64,000 nucleotides of DNA, taken from positions 3,683,501-3,747,500 of the forward strand of contig NZ_CP036299.1 of the NCBI RefSeq assembly GCF_007752345.1. The letters run 5' to 3'. Shown here piece by piece: positions 38,001 to 44,959 of the stretch. The notes beneath the pieces are model-generated. The model had not been told where the DNA came from and ran no database searches. It saw only the letters and a list, made by a program, of their open reading frames with translations. Within the stretch, counting starts at the first letter, position 1. Each line of letters begins with the position of its first letter. Source of the DNA: Planctopirus ephydatiae. GTDB taxonomy: Bacteria > Planctomycetota > Planctomycetia > Planctomycetales > Planctomycetaceae. Position numbers and translations under genes: made by a program.

Positions 38001-39833
38001 TCAGATCTCGACGGGCAGATCGATCTCGGGGGCGAAGGTCTGCCACCATCTTTCCGCCTGATCGCTATTCCACTTGCCCGAAACACTGCATCGACAGAGC
38101 GCCAGTTCCAACTCACGAGCCGAGCCAAATCGCAATTCCTGATTTTTTGCCAGACAGCGGAGAACAATTGCTTCCACATCGGCAGGAATATCGGCTCTCA
38201 GATCTCGCAGCGGCACAACTCGATCTCGCGCATGCTTGATCATCACCTGTACGGGAGTTTTGCCTTCAAATGGAGGACGCCCCGTGAGCAGAAAATACGC
38301 GGTTGCTCCCAGAGCATAGATATCACTCCGGGCGTCAGGCACACTCTCGTAAGTCGCCTGTTCTGGCGACATGAACAGCGGCGAGCCAGCCACGCTCGTC
38401 TGCCGGCTGCTGTCGCTATAACCTCGAACACGCACACCACGAGAATCGAGCACCAGACCAAAATCCAGCAGTTTCGCCACATCGTACTCACCGCCGCGTT
38501 TGGCAGCATAAACGTTGGCGGGTTTCAAATCGCGATGGATCATTCCCAGTTGATGGGCCTCATGCAGCGCCCGGCAGGTCTGAATCAGAAAATGAACCGT
38601 ACGCTCAGGAGAAAGCGGCCCGAAACGAGCCACCAGTTCTCCCAGATTCATCCCCGGGAGATACTCCATGACGTAGTAGAAAGTGCCATCTTCGGTATGA
38701 CCGTAATCATAAATTTCAACAGTGTTCCAATGTGAAAGTTGCGCCATACTGCGAACTTCCTGCTCGAACCGCATGAGGGCTATGGGATCAGTCCCATACT
38801 GAGGATGAATCAGCTTGACCGCACATGGACGAGTTAACAGCCGATGTTCCGCCAGAAAAACCTGTCCCATCCCCCCTGCTCCCAATCTCCTGGCCAGTCG
38901 ATACTGGCCCAGCTGACGGGCTCGGCTGACTTCCTGTCTCAAGGCCGATATCGTGAATGTTCCCCAGATCGAAGCGAAGAGCGAAACAGCCAATGTCGTG
39001 GCCAGTTCGAGGCAAACCTGGAGAGTGAGAACTTCCTGAGTCCAGGGGATGGACATTCGCAGGTAAGCAATCGTCACTAATGGCGCCAGAGCTAAAGGCG
39101 ATAAAAGGACCGCAGCCCTCTTCCAGCCATTAGGAATCAACATCGCATAGGACATCATCACGATGATGAGGCCCAAGGTACCATTATGCAGCAGATCACT
39201 TAAAAGTACGCTGTTTTGCAGGACACCCGCTTCTCGCATCTGGAGCAGTTGTGTCAACACGATCTGAATGGCCGGCGGGATGAACAGCAACAGTTCAAGA
39301 AATCGAAGTCTGTCCAGATGAAGCATTCGATTTTTCAGCAGAATGCAAAGACAGGTGATAGAGTTCAGCAGGACGATCGCACGTAAGTACGGATAAGGCG
39401 AACTTTGCACGACCAGCGAGCGGATGAAGTACGCCAGTAATCCCACACACACCAGAATGGCAGCAGCAATTAATCGCTGCTGGATCAATGTCCCGGAACG
39501 ACCACGCGGACGGCCTACATCAGCATTGACCTGGCCTGGCGACAAATCTCGAACACGTTCGACTTTTCTCTTCGGAACCGGAGGAGATAACAACTTCATC
39601 TGAGTTGTCACACCAGATGCAGAAACTGAGGGGCCAGTGGTATGAAGAACTTCAGGATTGTGTTCAGGCAATAACCGAGAGGCATCTGCAGATTCTGCAC
39701 CACCCGACAAAAGTTCATCCAGAGTTTTGAGATCGGTCCCAAATGCCGCATGCCCCACGAGGGTGGGTTCCAGAGCCGCTTCATCGTCGACAATGTCACC
39801 ATCGTCGAAGATCAGCTGATCTGCTGCCCGCAT
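38001..39833 (-). CDS. Multi-spanning membrane Ser/Thr kinase with C-terminal kinase domain
   Basis: The 610-residue protein has an acidic, then basic N-terminal region (about 1-115). About six hydrophobic spans follow between 118 and 295, and a complete Hanks kinase domain lies at about 315-590: 'LGAGGMGQVFLAEH' Gly loop, 'CAVKLIHP' Lys, 'MIHRDLKPANVY' catalytic loop, 'LLDFGLVLD' (canonical DFG) and 'FMSPEQ'. The order (membrane part first, kinase at the C-terminus) is the reverse of the usual PknB layout; it has no extracytoplasmic sensor domain and the membrane block itself may sense. The start is strongly supported by AAGGAG 7 bases upstream. It is transcribed alone. Confidence 0.92.
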   Translation of the reverse strand: MRAADQLIFDDGDIVDDEAALEPTLVGHAAFGTDLKTLDELLSGGAESADASRLLPEHNPEVLHTTGPSVSASGVTTQMKLLSPPVPKRKVERVRDLSPGQVNADVGRPRGRSGTLIQQRLIAAAILVCVGLLAYFIRSLVVQSSPYPYLRAIVLLNSITCLCILLKNRMLHLDRLRFLELLLFIPPAIQIVLTQLLQMREAGVLQNSVLLSDLLHNGTLGLIIVMMSYAMLIPNGWKRAAVLLSPLALAPLVTIAYLRMSIPWTQEVLTLQVCLELATTLAVSLFASIWGTFTISALRQEVSRARQLGQYRLARRLGAGGMGQVFLAEHRLLTRPCAVKLIHPQYGTDPIALMRFEQEVRSMAQLSHWNTVEIYDYGHTEDGTFYYVMEYLPGMNLGELVARFGPLSPERTVHFLIQTCRALHEAHQLGMIHRDLKPANVYAAKRGGEYDVAKLLDFGLVLDSRGVRVRGYSDSSRQTSVAGSPLFMSPEQATYESVPDARSDIYALGATAYFLLTGRPPFEGKTPVQVMIKHARDRVVPLRDLRADIPADVEAIVLRCLAKNQELRFGSARELELALCRCSVSGKWNSDQAERWWQTFAPEIDLPVEI

Positions 39834-40114: not shown

Positions 40115-41371
40115 TTACAGCGCAATGCCGGGAACTGGATAATTCTTGCAGAACTCGCAGATCTCCTGGCGAATCTTGCCCAGGGTGGTTGCATCTTCCG
40201 GATGCTTGAAAATCTGCAGGATCCACTGACCGACCTGCTGCATTTCCGCTTCTTTCATTCCTCGAGTCGTGAGCGCCGGTGTACCGAGTCGAATTCCGCT
40301 GGGGTCCAGCGGCTTTCGTGTGTCGTAAGGAATCATGTTTTTATTGGCGGTTACTCCGGCGACATCCAGCGCATGTTCGGCGATTTTCCCAGTCAGACCG
40401 ACAGATGTGACGTCGCACAGCATCAGGTGATTATCCGTCCCCCCAGAAGCCAGACGCACGCCCCCGGCCACTAATGTTTCAGCCAACGCCCGGGCGTTTT
40501 TGATGACCTGTTCAATGTATTGCTTGAAAGCTGGTTGAGCCGCTTCACGGAAGCAGACCGCTTTACCAGCGACCACATGCTCCAGAGGCCCTCCCTGCAA
40601 TCCTGGAAAGACTGTTTTGTCGATCGTTTTGCCATGCTCTTCTTTGCAGAGGATAAACCCGGATCGGGGCCCGCGCAAAGTTTTGTGAGAGGTCGAAGTC
40701 ACAAAGTCCGCATGGGGCACCGGGCTGTTGTGCAGGCCCGCTGCCACCAATCCGGAATAATGGGCCATATCGACCATGAACAATGCACCCACGGATTTCG
40801 CGATTTCGGCGAACTTTCCGTGGTCGATTTCGCGTGGATATGCACTGGCTCCCGCAATAATCAGCTTCGGCTTGTGCTCCTTTGCCAGACGAGCCACCTG
40901 ATCAAAATCAATCCGGTGATCCGACTCTCGTACACCATAATGAACGGCGTTGTAAAGAATTCCCGAAAAATTCAATCCCATGCCATGCGTGAGATGGCCA
41001 CCATGGGCCAGATCCATCGCCAGAAAAGTGTCTCCCGGCTTCAAAAAGCCCATAAAGACAGCCATATTGGCCTGAGAACCGGCATGAGGCTGCACGTTCG
41101 CATATTGAGCACCGAACAGCGTGCAGGCCCGTGTTCGAGCAATGGACTCGATCGTATCCACATGCTCGCAACCACCATAATAACGTCGACCCGGATACCC
41201 TTCGGCATACTTATTCGTGAGGACTGAGCCTACAGCTTCAAGTACAGACTGACTGGTGTAATTCTCTGAGGCAATCAGTTCCAGACCGTCATGCTGCCGG
41301 ACTTCTTCTTGTCGAATTGCACCAGCAATCTCAGGATCTGCAGCGGTCAGCACAGGCATACGGTCGGCCAT
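40115..41371 (-). CDS. glyA: Serine hydroxymethyltransferase
   Basis: The 418-residue PLP enzyme interconverts serine and glycine with tetrahydrofolate and is the main source of one-carbon units. Diagnostic pieces are '[20 protein letters not shown]', '[18 protein letters not shown]', 'HGGHLTHG', '[12 protein letters not shown]' and the PLP-lysine motif '[14 protein letters not shown]'. The length equals bacterial GlyA. The ATG at 41371 is chosen because AGGGAG lies 8 bases upstream; a TTG one codon earlier is not needed. It is monocistronic and followed by a perfect hairpin. Confidence 0.97.
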
Positions 41372-41819
41372 CAATTATTCTCCCTGATATCAATCGCTTA
41401 TTCTGATCATCGATTTGCCAGTTTGGACAGAACGCCCTCTATGGCGCGTGCTGTACTGATCAACCTGAGCCTTACTCCAAATTATAGGCAATGCAAGCGA
41501 GCTTCGCACCTGTGCTCCCTGATGAGTAGGTAATTCCAGAGCACCATGAATTCTTTGCGCTCTTTGGCCCCTTGAATTCATGAAACCCATGGACTGATTG
41601 AAATCGCAATCCCCGAGACGACATTCTGAAATGATGTTGTCTCATCGGAAATTCAATTCTGACTCGAAAAGTAAGACAAAATTGCCGTGAGCCAACCTGT
41701 GGTGAATTGGCAATCGAACGTTCGATCCCGCACAATATGTGGATACTCCACAACTTTGCTGAACAGAAGTCAGCCGCCCGCCGGAAGATCAACCTCCGCG
41801 ATTGTCTTTGCTCAGGAAC
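41372..41819. other. Divergent intergenic region between glyA and the BRCT-MerR-TPR gene
   Basis: About 448 bases expected to hold the glyA promoter (minus strand) and the promoter of the BRCT-MerR-TPR gene. I see no protein-coding gene. The notable element is the 14-bp palindrome at 41713-41726. Confidence 0.4.
41713..41726. promoter_or_regulatory. 14-bp perfect palindrome upstream of the MerR-like gene
   Basis: ATCGAACGTTCGAT is a perfect palindrome about 95 bases upstream of the BRCT-MerR-TPR start. MerR-family proteins bind inverted repeats in promoters, so it could be an autoregulatory operator; this is inference from position only. Confidence 0.4.
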
Positions 41820-43154
41820 ATGTCTATGAACTCTGCGGAAACGCCGATTATCTCCGCGGAATCCACGAGCCCATTGATGAGCACTGCTCCACTTCAAGGT
41901 GAGCGAGTCACATTTACGGGAACACTCGCTTCGATGACCCACCGGGAAGCAGCCGGATATGTCGAGCAGTATGGGGGAACTTTCACGAATCAGGTTTCCC
42001 AGCAGACAACCCTGCTGGTCGTCGGCGATGAAGGTTGGCCACTGGAAGAAGATGGTCAACCTTCGTTAAAGCTGGAGGCTGCTCGTGAACTGCTCGAACG
42101 GGGATTCCCGATCAAAATTCTCAGCGAGCCCGAGTGGCTGCAGTTGATTGAGCTCGAGAATCCGTCTCCAGCAGATCGCAGGGTCTTTACCCCAGCCATG
42201 CTGAGTCAGTTAATGAAACTCCCCGTTTCGCGCATCCGTCATTGGGAACGCTTGGGACTGATTCGACCGGTTCGACGAGTTTGCCGATTACCTTATTTCG
42301 ATTTTCAGGAAGTGACGGGGGTTCGCCGACTGGCAGATCTGATTTCGACTGGGATTTCTCCCAAGAAAATTGGTGCCAGCCTGGAGAAGCTGAAGTCGTT
42401 GCTGCCCACGATTGAAAGACCTCTCGCTCAACTCGAAATTCTCTCGCAAGACCATCAACTTTACATTCGGGACGCTGCCAGCCTGCTGGATCCACAAACA
42501 GGTCAGCGGATCTTTGATTTCCATGAAATCCCCGTCAACGACGGCGAAAGTTCGGCAAACAAGCTGGATTCAGACGATGGTTCAGCTTCTGAAAATACGC
42601 TGACAATCCCCTTTCCTGGCCATACCAAAGCGATTCATGGCCTGCAGAATCCCTCCAGAAACTGGGGAGCCAATGAATGGGCTCATGCCGGTTCAACATT
42701 GCTCGACTCAGGCGAAACAGTGGCAGCCATACAGGCTTTTCGCAGAGCCTTGCTACTGGCTCCTCGCGAAGCTTCGATTCATTTTCAATTAGCCGATGCC
42801 TTGTACCGCTCTGGAAATTATGCGGGAGCCGCAGAACGGTATCATGTGGCTGTGGAATGCGATGCCGAGTACATCGAGGCCTGGACGCAACTGGGGTGTG
42901 TCCTGGCACAAATGGGTGATACCAAGGCCGCCAGCGAAGCGTTTGAAGCCGCCCTGCTGCTCCACCCGGATTATCCCGATGCTCATCTGCATCTGGCAGA
43001 ACTTTTTGAGCAGATTGGCCAGCATTTGAAAGCCCGTCCTCATTGGCTGCGCTATCTCGATTTCGACAACCGCGGGCCATGGGCCGATATGGCCAGAGAA
43101 CGATTGGAACGGTCTCAAGGCGATGCTTCTGAGTCTCAACCTGAAAGCCTGTAA
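41820..43154 (+). CDS. BRCT-MerR-TPR fusion protein
   Basis: The 444-residue protein has three readable parts. Residues about 27-110 fit a BRCT domain: 'GERVTFTGTLASMTHREA', 'VEQYGGTF', 'TTLLVVGDEG' and 'EARELLERGFPIKILSEPEW', as in the C-terminal domain of bacterial DNA ligase. Residues about 122-195 fit a MerR-type winged helix-turn-helix: 'VSRIRHWERLGLIRPVRRV' and 'YFDFQEVTGVRRLADLISTGIS'. Residues about 295-420 hold three to four TPR units ('FRRALLLAPREASIHFQLAD', 'AWTQLGCVLAQMGDTKAASE'). There is no ligand-binding dimerisation domain as in normal MerR regulators; the TPR replaces it. AGGA lies a few bases before the start; ATG 41826 is an alternative. The role could be a DNA-associated regulator or scaffold; it is unknown. 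Confidence 0.85.
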   Translation: MSMNSAETPIISAESTSPLMSTAPLQGERVTFTGTLASMTHREAAGYVEQYGGTFTNQVSQQTTLLVVGDEGWPLEEDGQPSLKLEAARELLERGFPIKILSEPEWLQLIELENPSPADRRVFTPAMLSQLMKLPVSRIRHWERLGLIRPVRRVCRLPYFDFQEVTGVRRLADLISTGISPKKIGASLEKLKSLLPTIERPLAQLEILSQDHQLYIRDAASLLDPQTGQRIFDFHEIPVNDGESSANKLDSDDGSASENTLTIPFPGHTKAIHGLQNPSRNWGANEWAHAGSTLLDSGETVAAIQAFRRALLLAPREASIHFQLADALYRSGNYAGAAERYHVAVECDAEYIEAWTQLGCVLAQMGDTKAASEAFEAALLLHPDYPDAHLHLAELFEQIGQHLKARPHWLRYLDFDNRGPWADMARERLERSQGDASESQPESL

Positions 43155-43364: not shown

Positions 43365-44207
43365 ATGCGTGCGAGCTCCCAGGGTTCATTCACCACACTG
43401 CTGCTACTCGTGCCAGTTCTGGCAGTGCCACTCTTTGCGATTTTTGGCCTGCCGGAAATTTCGACGGACACTCATCAGACATCTCTCGAAGAAGAGTTCC
43501 CGGAACTCTCGGATGTGACTCCGTTGGCCTCAGACGCTAAAGCTTTTGGTGCTGGGGCATTACCTTCTGAGACATCGTCTGCCCTGCCAGCAAGCACTAC
43601 GCCTCTCACCGAACATCCCGAGGGAGTCGCCGGAAATTCAGAGCCTCCACTTTGGAGTAATAATCAAGGGAGCAATAATCAAAATCCTCCTGATCAGAAA
43701 GAGCCTGGGACCACTCCGGCCGATGCTGGAGCGATGGCCTGGGCCGATACAACCTCTCCACCCGTCGGAACTGCACCACGAACACTGCCCAACGCATCCG
43801 CATCGCCATTAAGCAATTCTGAATTGAATGGCATGATCCATGGGGAGGTTGCAGAACATGAGATCGAAACCTCCCCTGCAAAAGGTGTGATTCCTGCTGG
43901 CAACACAGAGATCGCTGTCGCTCCAAAGTCTGCTGAAAAAATGGGCGGAAAGAAGTCATCCCGCGAAAAGCCGGCAGATACTCCCCCCTTAACCTGGCAA
44001 GATGCCGTACAGAGGCTGCACGCCTTACAGATTCGAAACTTCCGCCTCGAACCAGGTGCCGAACCCTCCGTATTTGTATTCATCTGCTCATACACTCCGG
44101 CAGACAACCCACGGATTTCGTACCGTTTCGAAGCCGAGGCTAACGAACCACTCAAAGCTGTCGAGAAGGTTCTTCAGCAGATTGAAGAGTGGAGTTCCTC
44201 ACGATGA
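43365..44207 (+). CDS. Membrane-anchored Pro/Ser-rich protein of unknown function, coupled to scpB
   Basis: The 280-residue protein has one N-terminal span (about 11-29, Leu/Val/Pro-rich). A long low-complexity region follows (about 35-200), rich in Ser, Pro, Thr, Ala and Asn, likely disordered and extracytoplasmic. A small folded C-terminal part (about 210-280, with 'WQDAVQRLHALQIRNFRLEPG', 'FVFICSYTP' and 'ISYRFEAEANEPLKAVEKVL') ends it. The start is well supported by AGGGAGG 8 bases upstream. The stop overlaps the start of scpB (ATGA), which indicates translational coupling. No family is recognised. Confidence 0.75.
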   Translation: MRASSQGSFTTLLLLVPVLAVPLFAIFGLPEISTDTHQTSLEEEFPELSDVTPLASDAKAFGAGALPSETSSALPASTTPLTEHPEGVAGNSEPPLWSNNQGSNNQNPPDQKEPGTTPADAGAMAWADTTSPPVGTAPRTLPNASASPLSNSELNGMIHGEVAEHEIETSPAKGVIPAGNTEIAVAPKSAEKMGGKKSSREKPADTPPLTWQDAVQRLHALQIRNFRLEPGAEPSVFVFICSYTPADNPRISYRFEAEANEPLKAVEKVLQQIEEWSSSR

Positions 44208-44959
44208 GCATGCCCCTACCCTGGGCTCGCACTTCGGGAAACTTTCAGCAAAACCATTCGTGGCAGGTCAATCACGAACATCGCTGGAAGCAAGGCCACT
44301 CGGCATCATTATTTCAGTGGTTGATCCAACCACAATCTCCAGCCGGCCAGCCTGGTCATATCTTTGGACTGGAACAAAGCCCCGGCTCAACCAACTCTGT
44401 GCGAACATCCCGGTTGGCGAGATTGGAAGCGATTCTCTTTGTCGCCGATGGCCCGCTTCCTATCAAGAAGCTGGCCAATTTAGCCAGCCTGACAGATGTT
44501 CGCGAAGCCGAACAAATGATCCACTGGCTCAACCAGAGCTATCAATTCACCCACAGTCCCTATCAGATTTACTCTCTGGCGGGCGGATACCAGCTTCTAA
44601 CAAACCCTGATTATCAGCCGTGGCTCACTCGCCTGAACACAACTCGCAAAGCTCCGCAACTGACACCATCCACATTAGAAACATTGGCAATCATCGCGTA
44701 TCGGCAACCAGTTACACGTGCTGATGTCGAGCAGATACGAGGTGTGCAGTGTGTCGATATTCTCAAACAACTGATGGAAGATGGCTACGTCCGCCTGGCA
44801 GGTGAAGACACAAGCCTCGGCCGGCCTTACCTTTACGAAACAACGAAGAAGTTTCTGGAGGATATGGGGCTGGTCAGTCTGGATGACCTCCCCCACCGCG
44901 ATACTTTTCCATCTCGCCACTCGAATTCCAACAATGGGAAGAGTGAAAAGGCTGCGTAA
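44204..44959 (+). CDS. scpB: Segregation and condensation protein B
   Basis: The 251-residue ScpB is the winged-helix subunit that joins SMC and the kleisin ScpA in the bacterial condensin complex, which helps chromosomes segregate. The conserved body begins near residue 68: 'RLARLEAILFVADGPLPIKKLA', 'GGYQLLTNPDY', 'STLETLAIIAYRQPVTRADVEQIRGV', 'LYETTKKFLEDMGL'. The first 65 residues are an extra Gln/His/Pro-rich extension not usual in ScpB. scpA is not adjacent, although the two are commonly neighbours. It starts within the stop of the preceding gene. Confidence 0.92.
   Translation: MSMPLPWARTSGNFQQNHSWQVNHEHRWKQGHSASLFQWLIQPQSPAGQPGHIFGLEQSPGSTNSVRTSRLARLEAILFVADGPLPIKKLANLASLTDVREAEQMIHWLNQSYQFTHSPYQIYSLAGGYQLLTNPDYQPWLTRLNTTRKAPQLTPSTLETLAIIAYRQPVTRADVEQIRGVQCVDILKQLMEDGYVRLAGEDTSLGRPYLYETTKKFLEDMGLVSLDDLPHRDTFPSRHSNSNNGKSEKAA

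What the first reader, a model, noticed from the sequence alone, without database searches (positions are those of the whole stretch)
41820..43154. BRCT, MerR-type HTH and TPR joined in one protein
The N-terminal segment fits a BRCT domain as in bacterial DNA ligase and the middle fits a MerR winged helix. The C-terminus has TPR units instead of the usual MerR dimerisation and ligand part. BRCT modules are uncommon in bacteria outside LigA and a few repair proteins, so coupling one to a promoter-type HTH suggests a regulator or scaffold tied to DNA state or replication. The domain reading is from sequence; the role is inference.
Basis: partly seen in the sequence, partly recalled or inferred. 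Interest (0 to 1): 0.68.

Follow-up and report, generated by a model that had tools for sequence, protein, structure and literature searches.

The report
Ku-free cousin of DNA-break-repair operon protein
The protein really does join a DNA-nick-type BRCT domain, a MerR-type DNA-binding head and a TPR scaffold, and its relatives elsewhere sit directly behind the gene for Ku, the bacterial DNA-end-joining protein, so it is probably a DNA-repair adaptor rather than an ordinary gene switch.

Summary
The ORF (41820-43154; start more likely 41826) encodes BRCT (res. 25-110), a MerR winged helix (122-193), a conserved helix-hairpin ending GQ..FDF (194-236), a disordered linker and TPRs (284-437). Pfam, PDB sequence search and fold search agree. 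It occurs in 37 of 38 sampled genomes of its family and is under purifying selection.

The relatives' context changes the interpretation. BRCT-less homologues (MerR-hairpin-TPR) follow Ku in 12 of 12 Burkholderiales plasmid regions read (31 records matched). Outside the class, 10 of 12 Planctomycetota genomes with the BRCT form carry Ku (25 of 261 without it; Fisher p=2e-8), in 9 within about 4 kb upstream on the same strand, often with an ATP-dependent ligase between or LigD beside. The tree puts the window copy in a supported 39-row clade with no Ku beside it, apart from the Ku-linked rows. The window genome has no Ku, no LigD primase-polymerase and one other BRCT match.

Best reading: a stand-alone paralogue of an undescribed NHEJ-operon protein, probably a DNA-end/nick-binding adaptor. 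A transcription-regulator role is not excluded; no convincing operator was found. Architecture and linkage are shown; function is inferred.

The parts
41820..43154 (+). BRCT-MerR-TPR coding sequence (444 aa from 41820; start more likely 41826, 442 aa)
   Evidence: start argument
41814..41817 (+). AGGA, likely ribosome-binding site, 8 nt before ATG 41826
   Evidence: sequence; conserved in congeners
41892..42149 (+). BRCT domain, residues 25-110
   Evidence: Pfam, PDB sequence hits, fold Z 11.3 to Rfc1 7u1a
41916..41921 (+). T33-G34, the Ser/Thr-Gly half of the BRCT phosphate pocket
   Evidence: S/T-G in 28 of 30 family-f1 core copies; motif as described in PMC10386641
42063..42071 (+). S82-x-K84, the Ser/Thr-x-Lys half of the BRCT phosphate pocket
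   Evidence: S/T-x-K in 24 of 30 f1 core copies, K84 in 27 of 30
42183..42398 (+). MerR-type winged helix, residues 122-193
   Evidence: Pfam MerR_1, GlnR/TnrA by profile, fold 4r4e
42399..42527 (+). conserved helix plus beta-hairpin ending GQ..FDF, residues 194-236
   Evidence: alignment A4, G and Q invariant in its 22 rows; models
42528..42668 (+). disordered linker, residues 237-283
   Evidence: pLDDT under 50 for 233-278; 15% mean pairwise identity
42669..43130 (+). TPR superhelix, residues 284-437 (nine helices in the model: four helix pairs and a cap)
   Evidence: Pfam, model, fold
40115..41374 (-). glyA (serine hydroxymethyltransferase, named from sequence and recall), divergent neighbour
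   Evidence: adjacent and divergent in 24 of 34 f1 loci (window)

Best explanation
The protein is a stand-alone member of a DNA-repair adaptor family whose other members are encoded in bacterial non-homologous end-joining loci (ku, often an ATP ligase, then [BRCT]-MerR-TPR, with ligD beside). The winged helix (probably as a dimer) and the RFC1/LigA-type BRCT bind DNA, the BRCT preferring nicks or 5'-phosphorylated ends, and the TPR superhelix recruits a partner: Ku or a ligase for the operon-borne members; LigA or another repair factor in the window organism, whose genome has no Ku. SHOWN: architecture, conservation and selection, Ku linkage of relatives, the separate clade of the window copy without Ku beside it, absence of Ku and LigD primase-polymerase matches in the window genome. 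INFERRED: DNA-end preference, dimerisation, partner, and that the window copy still works in repair.
For: Domains and folds. Ku is the next gene upstream on the same strand in 12 of 12 Burkholderiales plasmid regions read of 31 matching records, with a gap of -4 to +29 bp in 10 of 12. In Planctomycetota outside the class, 12 of 273 sampled genomes have the BRCT form; 10 of those 12 have Ku, against 25 of the other 261 (Fisher p 1.9e-8); in 9 of the 12 Ku lies within about 4 kb upstream on the same strand. Two f1 genomes (G024, G005) carry both a core copy and a second BRCT copy between Ku and LigD; G063 has a divergent second form behind Ku. Pfam confirms, in representatives scanned, Ku PF02735, a roughly 310-aa ATP ligase PF01068+PF04679 and LigD Prim-Pol PF21686. 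In the tree of the HTH-to-C-terminus part, 30 of 43 rows outside the core clade are Ku-linked and 0 of 39 in it. Of seven segments compared, BRCT and HTH are the most conserved (60% and 58% mean pairwise identity in 29 f1 copies), so the BRCT is under constraint.
Against: The window genome has no Ku and no LigD Prim-Pol, and no repair gene was recognised beside the core copies, so their repair role rests on kinship alone. The conserved next-door gene is glyA. Of 26 class genomes with a core copy only 3 (G042, G063, G069) have Ku at all, elsewhere in the genome. In f5/f7/f9 core copies the pocket motif is gone in 9 of 9 while the HTH residues stay, so the BRCT ligand cannot be the same throughout; of 14 other/Ku-linked BRCT forms only 3 keep both pocket motifs. 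For 19 of 35 Ku-bearing genomes outside the class no such gene is listed near Ku (the match list was cut). In whole yeast RFC, removal of the BRCT region changes DNA binding only about two-fold (PMC9293004, passages). MerR heads are normally transcription regulators.
Confidence: 0.55

Rival explanations
1. It is a transcription regulator: the MerR head binds a promoter (its own, glyA, or in relatives the ku-ligD operon), and BRCT and TPR feed in signals from proteins.
For: MerR_1 hit and GlnR-like fold; R140, W142 and R144 kept in 30 of 30 f1 core copies; divergent from glyA in 24 of 34 f1 loci (window), a common regulator arrangement; McdR/Rv1830, recalled as having a similar post-HTH segment, is a MerR regulator of division and repair genes (PMC9040748, abstract and passages). 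A perfect 14-bp palindrome lies at 41713-41726. Palindromic motif scores exceed shuffles upstream of ku on 12 plasmids (38.9 against a maximum of 30.8; 47.1 against 35.6).
Against: Over 17 glyA-core intergenic regions the best palindromic motifs barely exceed shuffles (32.0 against 29.8; 38.7 against 38.4; 8 shuffles each). The ku-upstream sites lie at differing positions and several look like ribosome-binding sites, and the 12 plasmids are related. The 41713 palindrome is not kept in all congeners. In ku loci the gene is downstream, in 10 of 12 plasmids at -4 to +29 bp, which suits a complex partner.
Confidence: 0.3
2. It is a phosphoprotein adaptor: the BRCT reads a Ser/Thr-phosphorylated partner made by one of the Hanks-type kinases, and the HTH is a structural or non-specific DNA anchor.
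For: Both halves of the phosphate pocket kept in 22 of 30 f1 core copies; a Ser/Thr kinase at 38001-39833 two genes away; kinase homologues directly downstream in L056, L075 and L153.
Against: Kinases are abundant in such genomes (recalled), so nearness is weak; L056 and L075 belong to the group that lost the pocket. The closest BRCT folds are those of Rfc1 and ligase.
Confidence: 0.1
3. It serves serine/one-carbon metabolism through the conserved divergent partner glyA.
For: glyA adjacent and divergent in 24 of 34 f1 loci (window).
Against: 10 of 34 f1 loci lack it there, and none of the non-f1 loci shows it (flanks limited); no clear shared operator; relatives sit with Ku and LigD.
Confidence: 0.05

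Closest known systems
RFC1 / LigA class BRCT domain (2k6g, 2ebu, 7u1a; ligase chain of 9a6z)
   Same: sequence hit to RFC1 E 4.8e-5, fold Z 10.2-11.3 with 77-78 residues aligned, S/T-G and S/T-x-K pocket in most f1 copies
   Different: N-terminal to a winged helix and TPRs; no clamp-loader or ligase domain
GlnR/TnrA branch of MerR winged helices (4r4e, 4r24)
   Same: profile E 5.9e-11 to GlnR, Foldseek probability 1.00, E 0.02
   Different: followed by a helix-GQ..FDF hairpin and TPRs; no convincing operator found
Unnamed 'tetratricopeptide repeat protein' behind Ku in Burkholderiales (for example WP_013954363.1)
   Same: same HTH, hairpin and TPR order, found by tblastn; same tree
   Different: no BRCT; part of ku/ligD loci on plasmids
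[quoted passage not shown]
   Same: MerR protein acting on repair genes (PMC9040748); similarity of the post-HTH segment is recalled, not tested
   Different: no TPR, no BRCT (recalled)
Eukaryotic NHEJ BRCT proteins (LigIV, TdT; recalled)
   Same: BRCT module joined to DNA-end repair
   Different: no homology claimed beyond the BRCT fold; a functional analogy only

Membership tests
BRCT domain (PF00533) | profile score over the curated cut-off | tested here: met
   26.0 bits against 21.3
BRCT domain (PF00533) | BRCT fold | tested here: met
   Z 11.3 to Rfc1 7u1a, 78 residues, rmsd 2.1
BRCT domain (PF00533) | Ser/Thr-Gly and Ser/Thr-x-Lys phosphate pocket (of phosphate-binding BRCTs) | tested here: met
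   T33-G34 and S82-x-K84 in the window protein; both motifs in 22 of 30 f1, 0 of 9 f5/f7/f9, 3 of 14 other copies
MerR family regulators | MerR winged-helix domain | tested here: met
   33.0 bits against 21.6; GlnR match
MerR family regulators | C-terminal dimerisation helix and effector-binding part | tested here: inconclusive
   helix 196-211 is predicted, dimer not modelled; TPRs where an effector domain would be
MerR family regulators | inverted-repeat operator in target promoters | tested here: inconclusive
   best motifs over 17 intergenic regions barely exceed 8 shuffles; the method is weak
Ku-operon MerR-hairpin-TPR family | same domain order and common tree | tested here: met
Ku-operon MerR-hairpin-TPR family | gene adjacent to ku | tested here: not met
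   no Ku in the window genome; the window copy is a paralogue outside any ku locus, not an operon member
Bacterial NHEJ system (Ku + LigD) | Ku and LigD present in the genome | tested here: not met
   no Ku, no LigD Prim-Pol in G000

The most novel reading that the evidence does not exclude
Bacterial NHEJ has an undescribed third component: a winged-helix/TPR scaffold made right behind Ku, which in Planctomycetota has gained a BRCT domain and so resembles in function the BRCT-bearing ligase scaffolds of eukaryotic NHEJ; the window protein is a Ku-independent descendant that brings LigA or another factor to nicks and 5'-phosphorylated ends.
Probability: 0.3. Interest if true: 0.85.

Novelty: new variant of a known kind. 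Interest (0 to 1): 0.68.

Why it matters
Bacterial NHEJ is usually described as Ku plus LigD (recalled). A conserved extra gene directly behind Ku in two phyla, carrying a DNA-binding head, a protein-binding scaffold and, in Planctomycetota, a BRCT domain, would add a component that can be tested at once. The window organism would show what such a protein does where there is no Ku.

Tried and rejected
Operator search upstream of the gene: the first run was dominated by glyA coding sequence and is discarded. In one search glyA could be trimmed in only 10 of 25 sequences; its scores exceed shuffles (for example 46.0 against 34.6 for 18-bp palindromes) but may still reflect coding sequence. The properly trimmed run is marginal for 17 glyA-core regions; for ku on 12 plasmids the score exceeds shuffles, but the sites lie at differing positions and several look like ribosome-binding sites. 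Alignments within three genera showed conservation at genus level only.

ScpB (44189-44959) as functional partner: rejected, it follows the gene only in the window genus (window, L031-L033).

Whole-protein fold search was filled by TPR structures, so the N-terminal part was folded and searched alone. No DNA-bound or dimer model could be made.

The genome-wide scan used one short pattern and returned 22 loci, all titled Planctomycetota (or a group of it) or just 'bacterium'; this does not exclude BRCT-MerR elsewhere. Plasmids and phages gave 13 and 5 records whose matches cover at most 54% of the BRCT-HTH query, from its BRCT end (exonucleases, a helicase, BRCT proteins).

Literature: searches for BRCT+MerR+Planctomycetes, BRCT domain+MerR+tetratricopeptide, BRCT+planctomycet, MerR+TPR+Planctomycetes, LigD+NHEJ+TPR+operon, LigD+tetratricopeptide+non-homologous end, LigD+MerR (15 of 25 listed) and bacterial NHEJ+BRCT listed no paper whose title or abstract start describes this protein; the listed papers were not opened. 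A survey of bacterial NHEJ (PMC7719229, term search of the main text) has no occurrence of MerR, TPR, tetratricopeptide or planctomycet. Only open-licence PMC papers are held.

Rows dropped: the tree left out 13 rows: L077, L115, L121-L124 and near-copies L032, L074, L079, L082, L083, L125, L127. One search left out duplicates of the same places (L133, L134, L140, L141, L143, L144, L132, L164) and L031. A2 left out L059 and L077 of the rows of A1; A3 also L031, L032 and L082. In the tree, L100 and L111 were labelled Ku-linked by hand, because searches place Ku just outside the fetched stretch. L107 (G327) shows a short Ku-like ORF (36.9 bits) though one search lists no Ku for G327: it is counted as without Ku in the Fisher table and as Ku-linked in the tree. 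'No Ku seen' in the tree means none in the fetched flank, which is very short for L045, L050, L059 and L142.

Full report
OBSERVATION. The reading frame 41820-43154 (+) is open and codes for 444 residues. A start at 41826 fits better: AGGA at 41814-41817 is 8 nt away from it, and the congeners L032 and L033 have an ATG or TTG at that codon but no ATG at the 41820 codon. BRCT, MerR_1 and TPR models pass Pfam's curated cut-offs. The closest solved BRCTs by sequence are those of RFC1, with bacterial DNA ligases next but weak; the HTH profile is closest to GlnR and TnrA. AlphaFold on a 46-row alignment gives BRCT, winged helix, helix 196-211, hairpin, a disordered stretch 233-278 and TPRs. Residues 22-236 folded alone match yeast Rfc1 (7u1a) and the ligase chain of an integrative model (9a6z) at Z 11.3, and GlnR at Foldseek probability 1.00 with E 0.02.

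CONSERVATION. All 25 family-f1 genomes match; with the f1 genomes first seen it is 37 of 38 (G078 lacks it). In 29 f1 copies the BRCT and HTH are the most conserved of seven segments (60% and 58% mean pairwise identity), then TPR (49%) and helix-hairpin (46%); the long linker has 15%. Against congeners L031 and L032 the BRCT has dN 0.00-0.01 and dS 0.08-0.12. The phosphate pocket (S/T-G and S/T-x-K, motif as given in passages of PMC10386641) is complete in 22 of 30 f1 copies, 0 of 9 f5/f7/f9 copies and 3 of 14 others.

A SHARED BACKBONE. Searching with the HTH and the segment behind it showed the same MerR - helix - GQ..FDF hairpin - TPR protein without BRCT in other Planctomycetota (among L112-L120) and on 31 Burkholderiales plasmid records. 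The MerR-TPR join is therefore the wider theme and the BRCT the addition.

LINK TO NON-HOMOLOGOUS END JOINING. I read 12 of the 31 plasmid records. In all 12 the next gene upstream, on the same strand, is annotated Ku; LigD is annotated within the stretch in 8 of the 12 (not in 71, 72, 95, 97). The gap is -4 to +29 bp in 10 of 12. A Ku and LigD profile scan of the fetched loci then found Ku upstream on the same strand of many BRCT-bearing and BRCT-less forms; with two placed, 30 of the 43 tree rows outside the core clade are Ku-linked. Pfam confirmed Ku in 6 of 6 scanned Ku ORFs, a roughly 310-aa ATP ligase in 2 of 2 and LigD parts in 2 of 2. In the phylum sample 37 of 294 genomes have Ku. Outside the class, 273 genomes by my count from the two listings, 12 have the full BRCT-HTH form; 10 of these have Ku, against 25 of the other 261 (Fisher p 1.9e-8). 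In 9 of the 12 Ku lies within about 4 kb upstream on the same strand (places). Seen from Ku, 16 of 35 Ku genomes outside the class have a BRCT-bearing (9) or BRCT-less (7) form near it; the match list was cut, so weak forms may be missed. Genomes share ancestry, so the p-value overstates independence; the repeated same-strand adjacency in many families is the stronger point.

THE WINDOW COPY. The window genome has no Ku, no LigD primase-polymerase and two BRCT matches: this protein and a 726-aa frame, probably LigA (not scanned). A maximum-likelihood tree of 82 rows, from the HTH to the C-terminus, places it in a 39-row clade (support 99/98) of copies from families f1, f5, f7 and f9 with no Ku in the fetched flanks. 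A 33-row set (93/93, below the starred level) holds 20 Ku-linked rows; ten BRCT-less Ku-linked rows form the other side of the midpoint root. Genomes G024 and G005 have both a core copy and a second BRCT copy between Ku and LigD. Of 26 class genomes with a core copy, 3 have Ku elsewhere in the genome. The core copy is thus an old paralogue that mostly lives without Ku. glyA is its divergent neighbour in 24 of 34 f1 loci with enough upstream sequence (window), and in none of the non-f1 loci examined there.

MECHANISM. Shown: domains, constraint, Ku linkage of kin, no Ku in the window genome. From the literature: isolated RFC1 BRCT is reported to bind recessed 5'-phosphate DNA tightly, while in whole RFC removal of the BRCT region changes DNA binding only about two-fold (passages of PMC9293004). 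MerR winged helices bind DNA, usually as dimers (recalled). Inferred: the protein binds DNA ends or nicks and recruits a partner by its TPRs. I rate this 0.55, with a transcription-regulator role at 0.3. Against my reading: no repair gene recognised near the core copies, loss of the pocket in f5/f7/f9, and only 3 of 14 other copies with the full pocket.

NOVELTY. Eight literature searches listed no paper whose title or abstract start describes it; a term search of the main text of a bacterial NHEJ survey (PMC7719229) found no MerR, TPR, tetratricopeptide or planctomycet. Papers seen: passages of PMC9293004, PMC10386641, PMC9040748 and PMC7719229; the rest as search listings only. The library holds open-licence papers only.

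Noticed in passing
window 41713-41726: Perfect 14-bp palindrome in the glyA/BRCT-MerR-TPR intergenic region; one of 8 such palindromes in the window, kept in L032 but broken in L031.
   Followed up: partly
window 44189-44959 and 43365-44207: ScpB (PF04079) and a 280-aa protein without Pfam match follow the gene on the same strand; this order is seen only in the window genus.
   Followed up: partly
L087 1-3063; L088; L089: Long open frames (over 1100 aa) in families f2 and f3 with a BRCT-like match in the middle; L087 has a Pfam BRCT and a HEAT_2 match below its cut-off; L088 and L089 were not scanned.
   Followed up: no
L128 1686-2579; L129 899-1792: 297-aa BRCT proteins; L128 is an exonuclease (RNase_T) with a C-terminal BRCT; L129 has the same length and BRCT position but was not scanned.
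   Followed up: partly
L130 796-1176: A 126-aa stand-alone BRCT-like ORF in G147.
   Followed up: no
L076 909-3812: 967-aa open frame in family f7 with MerR and TPR parts far from its N-terminus and a BRCT-like stretch seen by alignment only (no Pfam BRCT); its first 450 residues are unexplained.
   Followed up: no
L121-L124: 207-213-aa MerR proteins without TPR that share the HTH and a GQ-containing segment; they recall McdR/Rv1830 (similarity recalled, not tested).
   Followed up: partly
L056, L075, L153: A Ser/Thr kinase homologue directly downstream of the BRCT-MerR-TPR gene on the same strand.
   Followed up: no
L160: On a Cupriavidus metallidurans plasmid, ku, the MerR-TPR gene and ligD lie near imuA and a Y-family polymerase.
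   Followed up: no
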